23,312 bases of DNA, from the IMG/VR virus record IMGVR_UViG_3300037189_003995, positions 1 through 23,312 of that record; one strand, given 5' to 3'. The notes beneath the pieces were generated by a model. The model searched no databases. It saw only the letters and a list, made by a program, of their open reading frames with translations, and was not told the origin of the DNA. A program made the position numbers and the translations under genes. Positions within the stretch are counted from its first letter, which is position 1. Every line of letters begins with the position of its first letter. Origin of the DNA: a virus. Of this stretch, positions 1 through 7,284 are shown piece after piece.

Positions 1-129
1 GAGGCTTCTCCAAAGAGTATTGATTGGAGCCAACTTAGTGAATACGAGTTGGAGGACAATACTGATTCTAGTCAAACTCTGGCTTGTACAGCAGACGGAT
101 GTGAGGTGGTAAACATTGGCAACTCTTAG
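1..129 (+). CDS. C-terminal end of an unrecognised acidic protein (5' end outside window)
   Basis: Frame 1 is open from the first base to a TAG at 127-129, giving 42 residues that run off the left edge. The visible part is acidic and polar, with a CTADGC motif near the end, a close cysteine pair. I recognise no family and assign no function. It is probably real: its stop lies next to the following leader reading frame (14-base overlap with a TTG start at 116, or one base before an ATG at 131), as expected for tightly packed phage genes on the same strand. At 43 codons a chance open frame cannot be excluded. More upstream sequence would settle it. Confidence 0.5.
   Translation, partial: EASPKSIDWSQLSEYELEDNTDSSQTLACTADGCEVVNIGNS
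103..109 (+). promoter_or_regulatory. Ribosome binding site (GAGGTGG) suggesting a TTG start at 116
   Basis: GAGGTGG lies six bases before TTG at 116-118. It is the only good Shine-Dalgarno match in the first 210 bases of the plus strand. The ATG at 131 is too far from it (21 bases), and the lysin ATG at 203 has no comparable motif. This favours translation entering the lysin frame at 116, upstream of the in-frame UGA. Confidence 0.5.
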
Positions 130-199
130 TATGGTAATCGTGGCAGCAAGTCTGCTTATCCCTATGCCTAGAACTAAGCCGGAGTATCCTCCGACTTGA
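116..199 (+). CDS. Short hydrophobic leader in frame with the lysin, ended by UGA
   Basis: Starting at TTG 116 (or ATG 131) the frame encodes 27 (or 22) residues with a hydrophobic core, MVIVAASLLIPM, then a Pro-rich tail, KPEYPPT, before TGA at 197-199. Hydrophobic core plus polar Pro-rich linker resembles the signal or anchor region of a secreted lysin. The next codon but one in the same frame is the ATG of the catalytic domain at 203. The segment may be the true N-terminus of that lysin, separated by a nonsense change, by programmed UGA readthrough, or made as a separate leader with re-initiation at 203. It lacks a clear positively charged n-region and an obvious AxA cleavage site, so the signal-peptide reading is tentative. 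Confidence 0.4.
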   Translation: MATLSMVIVAASLLIPMPRTKPEYPPT

Positions 200-202
200 A
201 AG

Positions 203-475
203 ATGCTCGTTAAGATCGCTCAATGCGAACAACCCGGTAATGGTTGGATGGGCGTTGCTTGGCGGCAAAATTATAACTACAGTTTTGCTGGAGGAATGGG
301 CATGACAACCCGGAACTGGGACGACTTCAAACGCAAAGGTCAACCAGATAGTATGCATCATGCTACTATTAAAGAACAGTTATGGGCTGCTCATCGTCTA
401 GCAATGTGGGTCAAGAAAGAGTATGGTAATCCTTGGCTCGCTTGGGATTGTTATACTAAAGGTAATTTAAAATAA
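203..475 (+). CDS. Small transglycosylase/Rpf-like cell-wall lysin domain
   Basis: This 90-residue protein is likely a peptidoglycan-cleaving domain of the lysozyme-like transglycosylase/Rpf type used by actinobacteria and their phages. The N-terminal motif IAQCEQPGNGW matches the family pattern with its catalytic glutamate in 'A-x-C-E' (Glu at about residue 9). It is followed by a Gly-rich GGMGMTTRNWDDF block, and ends with WVKKEYGNPWLAWDCY, resembling the Gly/Trp/Cys end of such domains; the two cysteines could form a disulfide. It acts on the host wall, so export or holin release is needed, yet the ATG at 203 has no leader and no good Shine-Dalgarno. The leader lies upstream in frame behind a UGA at 197-199. 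The gene converges on the minus-strand late operon and its stop overlaps the terminator region. The fold call is by motif recognition only. Confidence 0.7.
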   Translation: MLVKIAQCEQPGNGWMGVAWRQNYNYSFAGGMGMTTRNWDDFKRKGQPDSMHHATIKEQLWAAHRLAMWVKKEYGNPWLAWDCYTKGNLK

Positions 476-477
476 AA

Positions 478-506
478 AAGGGAGGATGCCAACGGCATCC
501 TCCCTT
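478..506 (-). terminator. Intrinsic terminator of the minus-strand late operon, between convergent genes
   Basis: A perfect 13-bp inverted repeat (AAGGGAGGATGCC / GGCATCCTCCCTT, arms 478-490 and 494-506) encloses a 3-base loop. On the minus strand the stem is followed by CTTTTTTATTTT, a textbook U-tract, starting five bases after the stop codon of the last late gene. On the plus strand the following bases (AATATTATC) are only weakly U-rich, so termination of the lysin transcript there would be less efficient. The U-tract side overlaps the lysin stop codon at 473-475. Confidence 0.9.
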
Positions 507-510
507 AATA

Positions 511-1208: not shown

Positions 1209-1403
1209 TTAAACACCCTCTTTAGCAGCCAATTCCTTGACCACATTATAAACAAACGACAACAAAGAAGCAACAGCAGCAACCACAGCAGGCTTAAGAG
1301 CATCCCAAGAATCAACATTCTCAATACCAGTAACAATAAGCACAGCAAGAAACGCCTGTAAAAACGTTAACACCGCACGGGTGATTACATTCCGCCAGTT
1401 CAT
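1209..1403 (-). CDS. Holin, r1t-type, two transmembrane helices
   Basis: The 64-residue protein resembles r1t-type phage holins, which form inner-membrane lesions that release the lysin. The N-terminal block MNWRNVITRAVLTFLQAFLA matches the family's 'R-A-x-x-T-F-x-Q-A-F-x-A' pattern. The first hydrophobic helix covers about residues 9-27, a short acidic loop (ENVDSWD) follows, and a second Ala/Val-rich helix covers about residues 36-55. A charged tail (KELAAKEGV) completes it. Its ATG (1401-1403) overlaps the TGA of the upstream gene as ATGA, implying translational coupling, with GGGG six bases ahead as Shine-Dalgarno. The XhlA-like gene lies two genes upstream and the lysin converges from the other strand. 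Confidence 0.75.
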   Translation of the reverse strand: MNWRNVITRAVLTFLQAFLAVLIVTGIENVDSWDALKPAVVAAVASLLSFVYNVVKELAAKEGV

Positions 1404-1800: not shown

Positions 1801-4800
1801 TTAGCCTCCTAACATTTCTAATAATCGTTGACTTTTCTTACTATTTGGCTTCTCATCTTGCAACTTAGCCAATACAAGATTAATTTGATCCTCAGCAAGC
1901 CCCTGAGACTGCGCAGCAGGCAACCAAACCTGCATAACATAATCACGCTTACGCTGCCAATCCTTAACACCATTAAGAGTTCTCTGAGCAGCCTCAGAAT
2001 ACTGCGACTCAGCAACCTTATTAACAACATAAGCACCGACCATATCACCACGAGCAGCCGGATCCATAGCATCCATATTAGTACGATACGTTTTAACACC
2101 AAGAATATTAAGAATAGCATTACCAGTATTACCAGTCATACTTTCTGTCTTACGCATCTCAGGAACATAAAGTTCCCAATCAGAAAACTTCTCATTATCA
2201 TCACGATTCTTAAGAATATCAATAGCATTATCAACAGTAGCATACTTATTAGACAAAGCATCCTTCTCATACTCAGTCTCCATAGAATCATAAATTCCCT
2301 TAGCACGACCAAGATAAGTACCCTTAACGATACCTTCACCCATATCCCAAGTAGAACTAAAAATACCATTACCAGACTGTTCACCACTAAAATCATACCG
2401 ACCAGTCTGAGGATCAACCCCAAGAGTGTCCTTAATAACACCATTAACATACGGATTAGTAAACTCAAAAACACTAGCACCAAGATCAGTACCAGTAAGA
2501 AGTTTAATAGCCGCAGCAGCCATATCACCAGTTGTAGAAAAAGGCGACAAAGCATTAGCATCAATACGGAAGTCAGTATCTTCCATACCAATCTTTTCTT
2601 TCAACCAGTTTGGAGCAGGAATAGTCATCATCATATAATCAGGCACACCACTATTAGCAGCCTGCACATAACCATACTGACCAATATTATACAACACATT
2701 ACTTGTAATAGGCTTATCAACCATCATACGATACGTATACGTAACAGAATGGCGCTGCCAAGCATAGAATGGCATTAAGAAATTACGCATCAACTGTTCA
2801 GTAGCACTAAACCTATGATAGTTACCACTAACAGTATTAGTAGTATAACGCATACGATGCTTTAATTGTGGATCAAAATGCGGCGAATTACGATCAAGCA
2901 AAAGATCAACCGCAGCCTCAAACGGAGTAATAGGATCATCTCCAGCACGAATAGCCCCATTCCAATCTACACCGCTATCAATATAATTACGAACCTCAGG
3001 CCCAGTCATAAACGAATTAAAACCAGCATCCTGCTTCAAATAATCAATAGCAACATTACGACGAATAAACTCTTCAAAAGCACTAATAGTAGTATAACCA
3101 AAATTCTGAACATACTTCCTAAACCACTCATGCTTATTAGACAAATCACGAATAGTATCAGGAGCATTATTACGAATACCAGAATCACGACGATAAACAT
3201 TATGATTAAACTCATACTGCAACTGTCTATTAACCGCCTCTGACTGGCGAACAATATCACTCATATTAGAATCACCACGCTTACGCGCAATACTCTGAGC
3301 AGTACGCATAAGAATAGTAATTGCAGCAGAAGGATTATGGATCATAAGCATTGTAATACCACCAATAACATTATTACTAATAAACTTAGGATTCATATTA
3401 AGAACAAGCCACTTAAAAATATTAGTAGGCCCTTTAACAAGAGGATTACTAAGCAAACGACTAGCATAATCATCACCACGAATAGCCATAACGCTTAACT
3501 GTGAATCAATCTGATTAGGCACAGCAAGCACATAACCATGATCCGGAATATCAATAGGATCACTATACATAACATCCTTAAAAGCAACTAGAGTACTATG
3601 GTTAGCAAGATCCTCATTAATACCATAAGGAGTCCAATCTTCAACACTACCACGTACAATATACTCAGTACGACCATCAGGAAGCACACGAATACCCATA
3701 CCAGCAGCAACATCAATAGTACTCTCAACCGGATCTAACAAACCCTGCTCAAGCAGCATCAAAGACTTTTCAAACTCGTCCTCAACACCACGCAACTTAG
3801 CAAACTCCCTAGCATCATTAACATTATCAAACGCCCTAACATTATGCAAGACACGATAACCAGAAACCTTAGGATCCTTACCACTCACAAGACTTGCCGG
3901 AACAAGCACCGCCTGATTCTCAGCAAGATTAGCAATATCACGCTCAACACGACTAACAAAATAATTAACCTGACTTCTAATAGCCTGAGAAAGACTATGC
4001 TCACGAAGAGCAGAATTAGCAATAACACCCTCATTCTTAACCATCTTCTCATTCATACGAGTACCATTACGACCAGACTCACTAACCTTCTCAGAATAAA
4101 AACGAGCATTAGGATACACATCAGCCATACCATTCAAAGCACCAGTCTCAAGCAACTCCTTAGCAGCAGACGGACTTTCTATAATAGTACTACCCTGACC
4201 ACGCTTCTTAGAAGCAAAAAATACCTTAGGGAGCGTAAAAACCTCTCCCTCATCAACAAGTTTACCAGTCTTAACAGCACCATTATCAAGTGTATGACGA
4301 AGCCTAGGAATATGAAACTGAACAAAATCAGGACCAGCGTTCTGCTGTTTAGCCAACACAAGAACAGGACGACCAATCTCTCCAGAACCACCCTGACCAT
4401 CCCTAAAAATACCAGCATTATCATCTGTTAACGCACGAACAGCAGTAACAAGTTCCTGCTTACGAAGAGTAGCCACATCAGGCTCAAGATCATCAAAAAC
4501 AGTACCAATCTTATCAGCACTCTGAGCCGCATCAATAATAGCAGCATCATCCTCAACATCAATCAAACGAGTCAAATACATACCTAAAGCATTATTAGGA
4601 CGAAGAACGCGATTAGTAAACTTACCAAGACGACCAGACTTACCATCCTTACCAAACAAATGACGATTAGTAAGACGCAAACCAAGCATAGCCTCAGAAT
4701 ACAATAACTTTAAATGAGCCAAAGTCGTAGGAGCCATATCCTCATGAATAAGCCTACTTCTAATAGACTCATCCTGACGAAGCATACCACGATAAAAGGC

Positions 4801-7284
4801 AACAGCCTCATCAAGTTCAACATCTCCAACCTTATACTCTGGATCAGCAAGCCTAGCACGTAAATCACCAATATTACGCTGACGATCCTCATCAAACTTA
4901 CGCGCAGCAGCAGCCTCATCAACCTTAGCCAACTCAGGATCCATCAACTTATTCAAACGACTAAGATATAATGCCTCATCATTACGAGCAGCAGGAAGAA
5001 CTTCCTTAGTAGTCTTATCACGAGGTAGTGCCTTTAACTTATCTCTAAGCGCTTGACGTTGAACACTAGACGAAGCAGCCATACCCAACTCACCAGTACC
5101 ACCAAACAACTCATTCTCAATAGCAGAACGCATAGGCTCACTAAGATTAACAGCACCATTAACACGCAACAACTTAGAAGCACGATACATCTCAGAAGTA
5201 GTATCGCCCCAATCATAAACCTCTTCATTCTGAATAGCCTTAGTATAATTCCAACGATAACCCAAACGAGGCATATCAATCATCTTAGTAGCAATCTTAA
5301 ACGCTAACTTATCAGGTGTACCCTTACTAAGTACCTTCTCCTGAGCAACATTCTCAACCTTACGACCAACCCAAGACCAACCCTCTTTAATACCGCGCAC
5401 AAGAGGACTAGCAGGAAGCCTAACAATGGCCTTATCAGAAGCATTAACAATACTATCTGGAGCCTCAAGAACCTTAGAACGAGGCTCAAACTGAGCAGAC
5501 AAACGCACACTCCAAGCATTCTCAGCCCCATTAAACTCCATACCCATAGCCTTCCAACGATCCAACTCAAGAATAGCATTACGCTCACCATTAAGAGCCG
5601 CACGAACTGTCTTCCTAAACTTACGAGGACTAGGTGCAGCAGCAAACTTACGATCTAACTCATCGCGCACACCAGTCTCATCCATATACGTACGTGCTTC
5701 AGCTAACTGTTCCGGAGTAAACCTATCAACAACAGAAGGAAACACATCATACGTACCCACACCCTCCTGCATATTACGAATAATAGGCTCATATAAAGGC
5801 CCACGCTCACCAATATCAGCAATAGCCTTATTAGCCGCCCCAAGTCGCGCAGTATCAGCCTTACTAACACCAATCTTACCAAACACACGACCAGTCTTAG
5901 CAGTAACACTAGCAACAGCAGCGCCCTTAGCAGCAAAACCAATAGCAGGAACCACGTCAAGAACATCCAAAGCAAGCGCAAGAGGATCAGTAGCAACCTC
6001 CTCACCCATACGATCATAATTATCAGGAGTAATCATACCACTCCAAAAACCCTGAAACTTCTTATTACCCTTCTCATCAAGAACATAATTACCATTCTTA
6101 TCAACCTGATAAGCAAACGGATCATAATAACGCTTAGCATAATCAGCCCAAATAGCATCGCCAATTTTAAAATCAACGCCCTCGCCCCAATCAGCCTTCT
6201 CACCGCTCACAACCTTAGCAGTTTCACTAACCGCTATAGCCGCCTCATCAGAAACAGCAGCAATACCACCGGGCAAACCAAGACCAAAACGAGCCAAACC
6301 ACGAGTAGCATTAATAGACAAACCAATAATACCAGCCTGATCAATGCCCTCCTGAAGGCCCTTATCACCCCAATAAACCTTACGACCCTTAAGCACATCA
6401 TGATCAGCAAGACCACTCATATAATCCATAGCCCTACTAGTCAAATCATTACCAGCAGTAGTACTACCAGTAATAGCGCCAATAGGTCCCGCAAGAAACG
6501 ACAAAGCAGTACTAGTCGCAACATTACTTGCAGTAGGAGCCTCACCGCCAATAGCCTGCTGAACCTCAGGAGAATAACGAGACTGAAACTCAGCAATAAT
6601 CTGCTCCATCTCAGTAATCTTTTCCTTATTAGGCTTAGACCTAGCAGTAGCACCTAACTTATAATCAGCATAACGAAACAACTCAGAACCATAAGCACGA
6701 TCACCCTCAGGCATATTAGGCTTAACAAGTTCCTTAGCAACATTAATAATACCCTTAGACAAATTATTCTGATACGTAGCCAACACATCATCATTACGAA
6801 TGGCTTTGTTATTAACATCGAAAAGAATACCATACTTACCAGTCTTAGACGGCATCGCACCATAACGCTTATAAAACTTGCTACCATCAGCACCATACTT
6901 AGTAGCAAAATCCGTATACATCTTTGCAAGCGAATTATACTGAGGACGACCCGGAATAAGTTGATTAGCAGCAGCAACATCTAAGAAAACATTCTTAGGG
7001 GTATTATCAAACAATTGAAAATCAGAAACATTCTTACTACGACGATAATTAGACAAAGCAACGGCTTGCTGCCATGGCTCGCCCATAAGACCAATAGTCT
7101 TCTTAGTTTTAGAACGACCATACAAACCAGCATAACCATACTTAGCCAGCCCCATAGCCTCATTAAAAGTATACTTAGGCTGCTTAACATCAGCAACACT
7201 AGTAATTTTACCATTAACTGTAACAAAGTTAGGCCGATTGGCTAACTGTGGATTATCTGTCTTAATCTCTGCATAACGAGCCAT
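1801..7284 (-). CDS. Giant 1827-aa internal virion / DNA-ejection-type protein
   Basis: This is by far the largest gene. Its place after two Ala/Gly-rich putative internal proteins and before the lysis genes matches the gp14-gp15-gp16 block of T7-like phages, whose products leave the head and form the ejection conduit. Visible features: hydrophobic Gly/Ala-rich stretches near residues 258-275, 325-345 and 433-460; an Asp/Lys/Arg-rich, mainly helical middle; a membrane-like segment near 1285-1325 (FISNNVIGGITMLMIHN); and an aromatic block near 1498-1555 (FLMPFYAWQRHSVTYTYRMM). The last two blocks recall domains of very large phage 'polyvalent' proteins. No catalytic motif such as a lytic transglycosylase ExxS was identified with confidence. 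GGAGG lies five bases before ATG 7282-7284. A tape-measure role is less likely given the podovirus-like tail genes. Confidence 0.6.
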   Translation of the reverse strand: MARYAEIKTDNPQLANRPNFVTVNGKITSVADVKQPKYTFNEAMGLAKYGYAGLYGRSKTKKTIGLMGEPWQQAVALSNYRRSKNVSDFQLFDNTPKNVFLDVAAANQLIPGRPQYNSLAKMYTDFATKYGADGSKFYKRYGAMPSKTGKYGILFDVNNKAIRNDDVLATYQNNLSKGIINVAKELVKPNMPEGDRAYGSELFRYADYKLGATARSKPNKEKITEMEQIIAEFQSRYSPEVQQAIGGEAPTASNVATSTALSFLAGPIGAITGSTTAGNDLTSRAMDYMSGLADHDVLKGRKVYWGDKGLQEGIDQAGIIGLSINATRGLARFGLGLPGGIAAVSDEAAIAVSETAKVVSGEKADWGEGVDFKIGDAIWADYAKRYYDPFAYQVDKNGNYVLDEKGNKKFQGFWSGMITPDNYDRMGEEVATDPLALALDVLDVVPAIGFAAKGAAVASVTAKTGRVFGKIGVSKADTARLGAANKAIADIGERGPLYEPIIRNMQEGVGTYDVFPSVVDRFTPEQLAEARTYMDETGVRDELDRKFAAAPSPRKFRKTVRAALNGERNAILELDRWKAMGMEFNGAENAWSVRLSAQFEPRSKVLEAPDSIVNASDKAIVRLPASPLVRGIKEGWSWVGRKVENVAQEKVLSKGTPDKLAFKIATKMIDMPRLGYRWNYTKAIQNEEVYDWGDTTSEMYRASKLLRVNGAVNLSEPMRSAIENELFGGTGELGMAASSSVQRQALRDKLKALPRDKTTKEVLPAARNDEALYLSRLNKLMDPELAKVDEAAAARKFDEDRQRNIGDLRARLADPEYKVGDVELDEAVAFYRGMLRQDESIRSRLIHEDMAPTTLAHLKLLYSEAMLGLRLTNRHLFGKDGKSGRLGKFTNRVLRPNNALGMYLTRLIDVEDDAAIIDAAQSADKIGTVFDDLEPDVATLRKQELVTAVRALTDDNAGIFRDGQGGSGEIGRPVLVLAKQQNAGPDFVQFHIPRLRHTLDNGAVKTGKLVDEGEVFTLPKVFFASKKRGQGSTIIESPSAAKELLETGALNGMADVYPNARFYSEKVSESGRNGTRMNEKMVKNEGVIANSALREHSLSQAIRSQVNYFVSRVERDIANLAENQAVLVPASLVSGKDPKVSGYRVLHNVRAFDNVNDAREFAKLRGVEDEFEKSLMLLEQGLLDPVESTIDVAAGMGIRVLPDGRTEYIVRGSVEDWTPYGINEDLANHSTLVAFKDVMYSDPIDIPDHGYVLAVPNQIDSQLSVMAIRGDDYASRLLSNPLVKGPTNIFKWLVLNMNPKFISNNVIGGITMLMIHNPSAAITILMRTAQSIARKRGDSNMSDIVRQSEAVNRQLQYEFNHNVYRRDSGIRNNAPDTIRDLSNKHEWFRKYVQNFGYTTISAFEEFIRRNVAIDYLKQDAGFNSFMTGPEVRNYIDSGVDWNGAIRAGDDPITPFEAAVDLLLDRNSPHFDPQLKHRMRYTTNTVSGNYHRFSATEQLMRNFLMPFYAWQRHSVTYTYRMMVDKPITSNVLYNIGQYGYVQAANSGVPDYMMMTIPAPNWLKEKIGMEDTDFRIDANALSPFSTTGDMAAAAIKLLTGTDLGASVFEFTNPYVNGVIKDTLGVDPQTGRYDFSGEQSGNGIFSSTWDMGEGIVKGTYLGRAKGIYDSMETEYEKDALSNKYATVDNAIDILKNRDDNEKFSDWELYVPEMRKTESMTGNTGNAILNILGVKTYRTNMDAMDPAARGDMVGAYVVNKVAESQYSEAAQRTLNGVKDWQRKRDYVMQVWLPAAQSQGLAEDQINLVLAKLQDEKPNSKKSQRLLEMLGG

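What the first reader, a model, noticed from the sequence alone, without database searches (positions are those of the whole stretch)
116..475. Lysin catalytic domain separated from its hydrophobic leader by a single in-frame UGA
The lysin frame carries, just upstream, a good Shine-Dalgarno (103-109), a TTG start (116) and a hydrophobic leader with Pro-rich linker, then TGA (197-199), one Lys codon, and the ATG (203) of the catalytic domain, which has no good ribosome site. With UGA read as Trp the frame would run continuously from leader to catalytic domain. UGA ends at least five other genes here (8187, 8855, 18571, 18993, 1400), so the code is standard and this would be a local event: programmed readthrough, termination-re-initiation giving a leader-less and a leadered form, a nonsense mutation, or a sequence error. 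A readthrough fraction could set lysis timing or lysin location.
Basis: partly seen in the sequence, partly recalled or inferred. Interest (0 to 1): 0.62.

Follow-up and report, generated by a model that had tools for sequence, protein, structure and literature searches.

The report
Conserved UGA splits phage lysin gene
In at least seven related uncultured phages, a gene for a cell-wall-cutting enzyme is interrupted at the same place by a stop codon between its export leader and its catalytic part, whereas more distant cousins have one unbroken gene; the stop is therefore a lasting feature, probably a way to limit how much enzyme is made or exported, and not a sequencing error.

Summary
The window's lysin frame runs TTG 116, hydrophobic leader, YPPT, TGA 197-199, Lys, ATG 203, Rpf-like transglycosylase domain, TAA 475. 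The TGA is not an error: six further distinct viruses (72-88% protein identity, synonymous sites near saturation) keep it at the same place, always followed by ARR ATG. Fourteen more distant relatives have a continuous frame with Tyr or Trp there; one, L023, has the same gene neighbour, TTG start and leader. The code is standard: TGA ends five window genes, no other real gene is interrupted, and no UGA-reading tRNA was found.

Two mechanisms fit and may coexist. Readthrough is favoured by the leaky UGA-A signal (3.5% of stops in these phages), by invariant YPPT, a family motif belonging to the catalytic domain, and by the lack of a Shine-Dalgarno at ATG 203. Termination-reinitiation is favoured by an ATG three nucleotides after the stop that is fixed in this clade and absent from relatives. 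My best reading is a translational gate: mostly termination with some reinitiation, plus minor readthrough (as Trp) giving the exported enzyme. This is untested. These phages also carry a CHAP endolysin and a holin, so this enzyme resembles kayvirus Tgl.

The parts
1..129 (+). 3' end of a gene read as class II (B12-type) ribonucleotide reductase, stop TAG 127-129, overlapping the leader start
   Evidence: the complete gene is read in L011 and lies next to the lysin in L023. The assignment rests on my reading of the sequence, not on a family search.
103..109 (+). Shine-Dalgarno GAGGTGG for the leader
   Evidence: -12.5 kcal/mol; -6.1 to -12.7 in the seven viruses
116..196 (+). 27-codon leader: hydrophobic stretch LSMVIVAASLLI, Pro-rich linker, YPPT
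   Evidence: pooled pN/pS 0.34
197..199 (+). in-frame TGA, followed by A, kept in 7 of 7 viruses
200..202 (+). single codon between TGA and ATG (AAG, AGG or AGA; always Lys/Arg)
203..475 (+). Rpf-like lytic transglycosylase domain, ATG 203 to TAA 475 (90 aa), putative catalytic Glu in CEQP
   Evidence: PF06737, below cut-off; Rpf folds rank first; pooled pN/pS 0.18
480..507 (.). hairpin GGGAGGATGCC-AACG-GGCATCCTCCC, apparent shared terminator between convergent operons
   Evidence: sequence
1209..1403 (-). holin (late operon, opposite strand)
   Evidence: phrog_443, E 3.9e-9

Best explanation
The TGA is a conserved translational gate in the gene of an accessory, exported peptidoglycan-cutting enzyme. 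Ribosomes start at TTG 116 and translate the export leader. At UGA-A most terminate; some re-initiate at ATG 203, three nucleotides on, and make a leaderless domain that stays inside the cell. A minority insert an amino acid, most likely Trp from host tRNA-Trp, and make the full leadered enzyme that the relatives make from an unbroken gene. The gate keeps the exported, lytic form scarce, which fits a gene placed at the end of the nucleotide-metabolism operon and not in the late operon with the holin. Shown: the layout, its conservation, purifying selection on both sides, and the unbroken homologues. Inferred: readthrough, reinitiation, the residue inserted, export, and the effect on lysis.
For: TGA in 7 of 7 distinct viruses with pairwise synonymous divergence mostly near or above 1. 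All non-TGA relatives keep an aromatic residue at or next to the position in an unbroken frame. UGA-A makes up 6 of 170 stop signals in these phages (3.5%) but 7 of 7 here; UGA followed by A is reported as particularly prone to misreading by tRNA-Trp in E. coli (PMC5289835). YPPT just before the stop has no amino-acid change despite 6 nucleotide changes, against 1.28 amino-acid changes per codon in leader codons 6-23; PP is invariant in all 21 homologues. In the model the ordered domain begins at residue 23 and helix 1 at residue 28, the TGA position. No Shine-Dalgarno at ATG 203 in any of the seven. Reinitiation across very short stop-start gaps is documented (PMC10666635, PMC12548453). Kayvirus Tgl, a secreted transglycosylase, lysed E. 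coli unless its signal peptide was removed (PMC7150955).
Against: No expression data. No conserved 3' RNA structure that might stimulate readthrough. No UGA-reading tRNA on the contigs. The stop staying TGA and not TAA is only moderately unlikely by chance: about a quarter of two-fold sites are invariant. Seven sequences from one clade are few independent events.
Confidence: 0.45

Rival explanations
1. Split gene by termination-reinitiation only. The leader is a separate 27-residue membrane peptide and the catalytic domain is made only by coupled re-initiation at ATG 203; it reaches the wall through holin holes. UGA is an ordinary stop.
For: ATG three nucleotides after the stop is fixed 7/7, and Met is absent from that column in all non-TGA relatives. 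The spacing lies within the -8 to +10 nt range taken as predictive of coupling (PMC10666635). The domain from Met30 keeps nearly all of the Rpf-aligned region. The same phages have a split DNA polymerase A, joined by a GTGA overlap in G004. A holin is present.
Against: It does not explain why YPPT, part of the enzyme's own family motif, stays invariant on the leader side, why the linking codon stays Lys/Arg, or why the stop is always UGA-A.
Confidence: 0.35
2. Readthrough only. ATG 203 is not used; the only enzyme is the UGA-read fusion protein.
For: No Shine-Dalgarno at ATG 203; UGA-A context; motif conservation; aromatic residue in homologues.
Against: The clade-specific ATG right after the stop would be a coincidence; no stimulatory structure or suppressor tRNA found.
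Confidence: 0.12
3. A degenerating gene: an old nonsense mutation tolerated because the CHAP endolysin suffices.
For: A CHAP plus peptidoglycan-binding endolysin exists in the same phages.
Against: Leader and domain both remain under purifying selection (pN/pS 0.34 and 0.18) with no frameshift in seven lineages and an intact catalytic motif.
Confidence: 0.05
4. Sequencing or assembly error, or a phage that reads UGA as Trp genome-wide (code 4).
For: Only the in-frame TGA itself.
Against: Same TGA in independent contigs of six other viruses; TGA ends five window genes and no real gene besides the lysin has one inside.
Confidence: 0.01

Closest known systems
Phage Q-beta coat/A1 UGA readthrough
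   Same: A phage gene whose UGA, read as Trp at a low rate (1/15), gives an extended protein (PMC8067240)
   Different: Q-beta is an RNA phage and the extension is structural; here it is a dsDNA phage lysin, the stop lies between leader and enzyme, and readthrough is not shown
Termination-reinitiation coupling, including RNA phage coat/lysis genes
   Same: Downstream start within a few nucleotides of the upstream stop, no own ribosome site (PMC12548453, PMC10666635)
   Different: Here both parts are in one frame and appear to derive from one ancestral protein
Kayvirus Tgl
   Same: Accessory secreted lytic transglycosylase beside a CHAP endolysin, transcribed apart from the late genes (PMC7150955)
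   Different: Different sequence family; Tgl has a signal peptide, and my term search of the paper found no mention of a stop codon
Stop-codon-recoding phages (code 15, code 4)
   Same: Stop codon inside phage genes, discussed for lysis genes
   Different: Genome-wide reassignment, usually with suppressor tRNA; here one site, standard code, no such tRNA found
Split lysA genes of Gordonia phages
   Same: Actinophage lysin in two ORFs (PMC9671378)
   Different: There each ORF has its own enzymatic domain; here leader and enzyme are parted

Membership tests
Programmed UGA readthrough | Stop conserved with coding selection on both sides in one frame | tested here: met
Programmed UGA readthrough | Leaky stop context (UGA-A) | tested here: met
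   7/7; 3.5% of stops in these phages
Programmed UGA readthrough | Stimulatory 3' RNA structure (not obligatory) | tested here: inconclusive
   no consistent conserved stem near the UGA, covariation term unfavourable; only seven sequences
Programmed UGA readthrough | Fusion product detected | not testable with these tools
   needs mass spectrometry or a reporter
Termination-reinitiation pair | Start codon within about 10 nt of the stop | tested here: met
   ATG 3 nt after TGA, 7/7
Termination-reinitiation pair | Downstream product depends on upstream translation | not testable with these tools
   needs a reporter; absence of a Shine-Dalgarno is consistent
Code 4 / recoding phage | In-frame TGA in many genes | tested here: not met
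   only the lysin; other hits are antisense shadow frames by my reading
Code 4 / recoding phage | Suppressor tRNA | tested here: not met
   none on the contigs scanned, some of them fragments
Rpf / PF06737 transglycosylase | Pfam gathering score | tested here: not met
   19.1 bits against cut-off 27; so called Rpf-like only
Rpf / PF06737 transglycosylase | Rpf fold | tested here: inconclusive
   Rpf structures rank first, Foldseek E 0.03-0.05, VIA Z 6.9 over 70 residues
SAR endolysin | N-terminal membrane helix that exports and later releases the enzyme | tested here: inconclusive
   12-residue hydrophobic core, mean KD 2.4-2.7, no basic N-terminus; export not tested

The most novel reading that the evidence does not exclude
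A dsDNA phage with a standard genetic code and no suppressor tRNA uses UGA readthrough by a host tRNA at one site to meter export of a lytic enzyme, with the leaderless form made by reinitiation from the same junction.
Probability: 0.4. Interest if true: 0.75.

Novelty: new variant of a known kind. Interest (0 to 1): 0.55.

Why it matters
Genome-wide stop-codon recoding in phages has been linked to lysis genes, but with changed codes. This would be a similar control point reached with a single leaky codon and an ordinary code. The junction is about 30 nucleotides long and can be put straight into a reporter. It also shows that gene callers will report only the catalytic part as a cytoplasmic enzyme and miss the export leader.

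Tried and rejected
Code 4: rejected. Suppressor tRNA: none found. RF2-like +1 frameshift at ACU-UGA: rejected because leader and domain share one frame, so no shift is needed. Selenocysteine: not favoured, since homologues have Tyr or Trp at the site; no SECIS search was run. Conserved RNA structure: none convincing. More clade members: three further viral scans, including a DNA pattern allowing any TNN codon at the site, gave no additional TGA-clade virus and none with TAA, TAG or TGG. Bacterial genomes: no relative. Named phages: no relative of the lysin. PHROGs: no family. PDB by sequence: none. A shallow first structure model was weak and was replaced by the deeper one.

Full report
OBSERVATION. 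The window is a 23,312-base IMG/VR viral record. The frame described is exactly there: TTG 116, 27-codon leader, TGA 197-199, AAG, ATG 203, 90-residue domain, TAA 473-475. The leader overlaps the end of an upstream gene that I read as a class II ribonucleotide reductase. The leader start has a strong Shine-Dalgarno; ATG 203 has essentially none, weaker than three quarters of internal ATGs in the same phages.

THE STOP IS CONSERVED. Two protein-based scans of IMG/VR found the relatives, 24 loci in the larger one. Six distinct viruses besides the window (L010 to L015; L016 and L031 look like copies of L010) have the same layout, with CCN-ACT-TGA-ARR-ATG in every case. Synonymous divergence is mostly near or above 1 while proteins stay 72-88% identical. 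Pooled pN/pS is 0.34 for the leader outside the gene overlap and 0.18 for the domain. Only 6 of 24 two-fold and 4 of 26 four-fold third positions are invariant in all seven. A sequencing error or fresh mutation is excluded.

RELATIVES ARE UNBROKEN. Fourteen more distant relatives (L017-L030 and L032, with L024 and L025 alike) have a continuous frame with Tyr or Trp at or next to the TGA position. One of them, L023, has the same reductase neighbour, a TTG start at the same overlap and a hydrophobic leader, followed by YPPHYM. So the TGA clade appears to derive from an unbroken leader-enzyme gene. The leaders of several relatives look like signal peptides by eye; no signal-peptide program was available.

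THE CODE IS STANDARD. TGA ends five window genes and occurs inside none of 19. A translated search with the relatives' proteins found the lysin as the only recurrent interrupted real gene; the other hits were on frames antisense to real genes, by my reading. No tRNA reading UGA was found, though several contigs are fragments.

READTHROUGH OR REINITIATION. For readthrough: UGA-A is 3.5% of the stop signals in these phages and 7 of 7 here, and a study of termination cites it as especially prone to misreading by tRNA-Trp in E. coli (PMC5289835). YPPT before the stop has no amino-acid change with six nucleotide changes, against 1.28 amino-acid changes per codon in leader codons 6-23; at that rate four unchanged codons have a chance of about 0.006 (0.11 at the domain's rate). 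PP is invariant in all 21 homologues. In the model, order begins at residue 23 and helix 1 at 28, so the stop cuts off the domain's own N-terminal edge. The codon between stop and ATG stays Lys or Arg. For reinitiation: the ATG is fixed in this clade and Met is absent from that column elsewhere, and such spacings support coupling (PMC10666635, PMC12548453). Neither excludes the other, and the data cannot give rates. These tests are post hoc and rest on seven related sequences.

THE ENZYME. Pfam PF06737 matches below its cut-off (19.1 against 27 bits). Structures of mycobacterial resuscitation-promoting factors rank first in Foldseek (E 0.03-0.05) and VIA-align (Z 6.9 over 70 residues). I call it Rpf-like. 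G004 and relatives also carry a CHAP plus peptidoglycan-binding endolysin, and the window has a holin. The arrangement resembles kayvirus Tgl, a secreted accessory transglycosylase beside a CHAP endolysin, which lysed E. coli when cloned with its signal peptide but could be overproduced without it (PMC7150955). That gives a motive for limiting the leadered form here. The host is probably an actinobacterium: the major capsid protein is nearest to Arthrobacter, Microbacterium and Cellulosimicrobium phages, at 25-30% identity.

VERDICT. A real, conserved, in-frame UGA junction in a phage lysin gene under a standard code. Its function as a translational gate is likely; whether the gate works by readthrough, reinitiation or both is open and easily tested. 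I found no report of such a junction in a dsDNA phage lysin in the papers searched, a library that lacks most subscription journals.

Noticed in passing
L023 7841-7925: Odd tRNA gene right after tRNA-Leu(UAA): long variable arm and 8-nt anticodon loop without the usual U33, ARAGORN anticodon 'acca'. Not seen after tRNA-Leu in L011.
   Followed up: partly
L039 6484-8186 (minus): DNA polymerase A split into two ORFs joined by a GTGA overlap in G004; in G002 and G014 the two halves are separated by extra DNA.
   Followed up: partly
L035 3963-4882: Array of 12 tRNA genes in G002, absent from the G003 and G004 contigs.
   Followed up: no
L015 499-909: A probable HNH-type endonuclease gene (by eye) sits between the ribonucleotide reductase and the lysin, and ends in the same GGCAACTCTTAG overlap.
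   Followed up: no
window 480-507: Perfect hairpin between the convergent lysin and late operons, flanked by A and T runs, probably a two-way terminator.
   Followed up: no
window 1801-7284: 1827-residue protein with no Pfam match.
   Followed up: no
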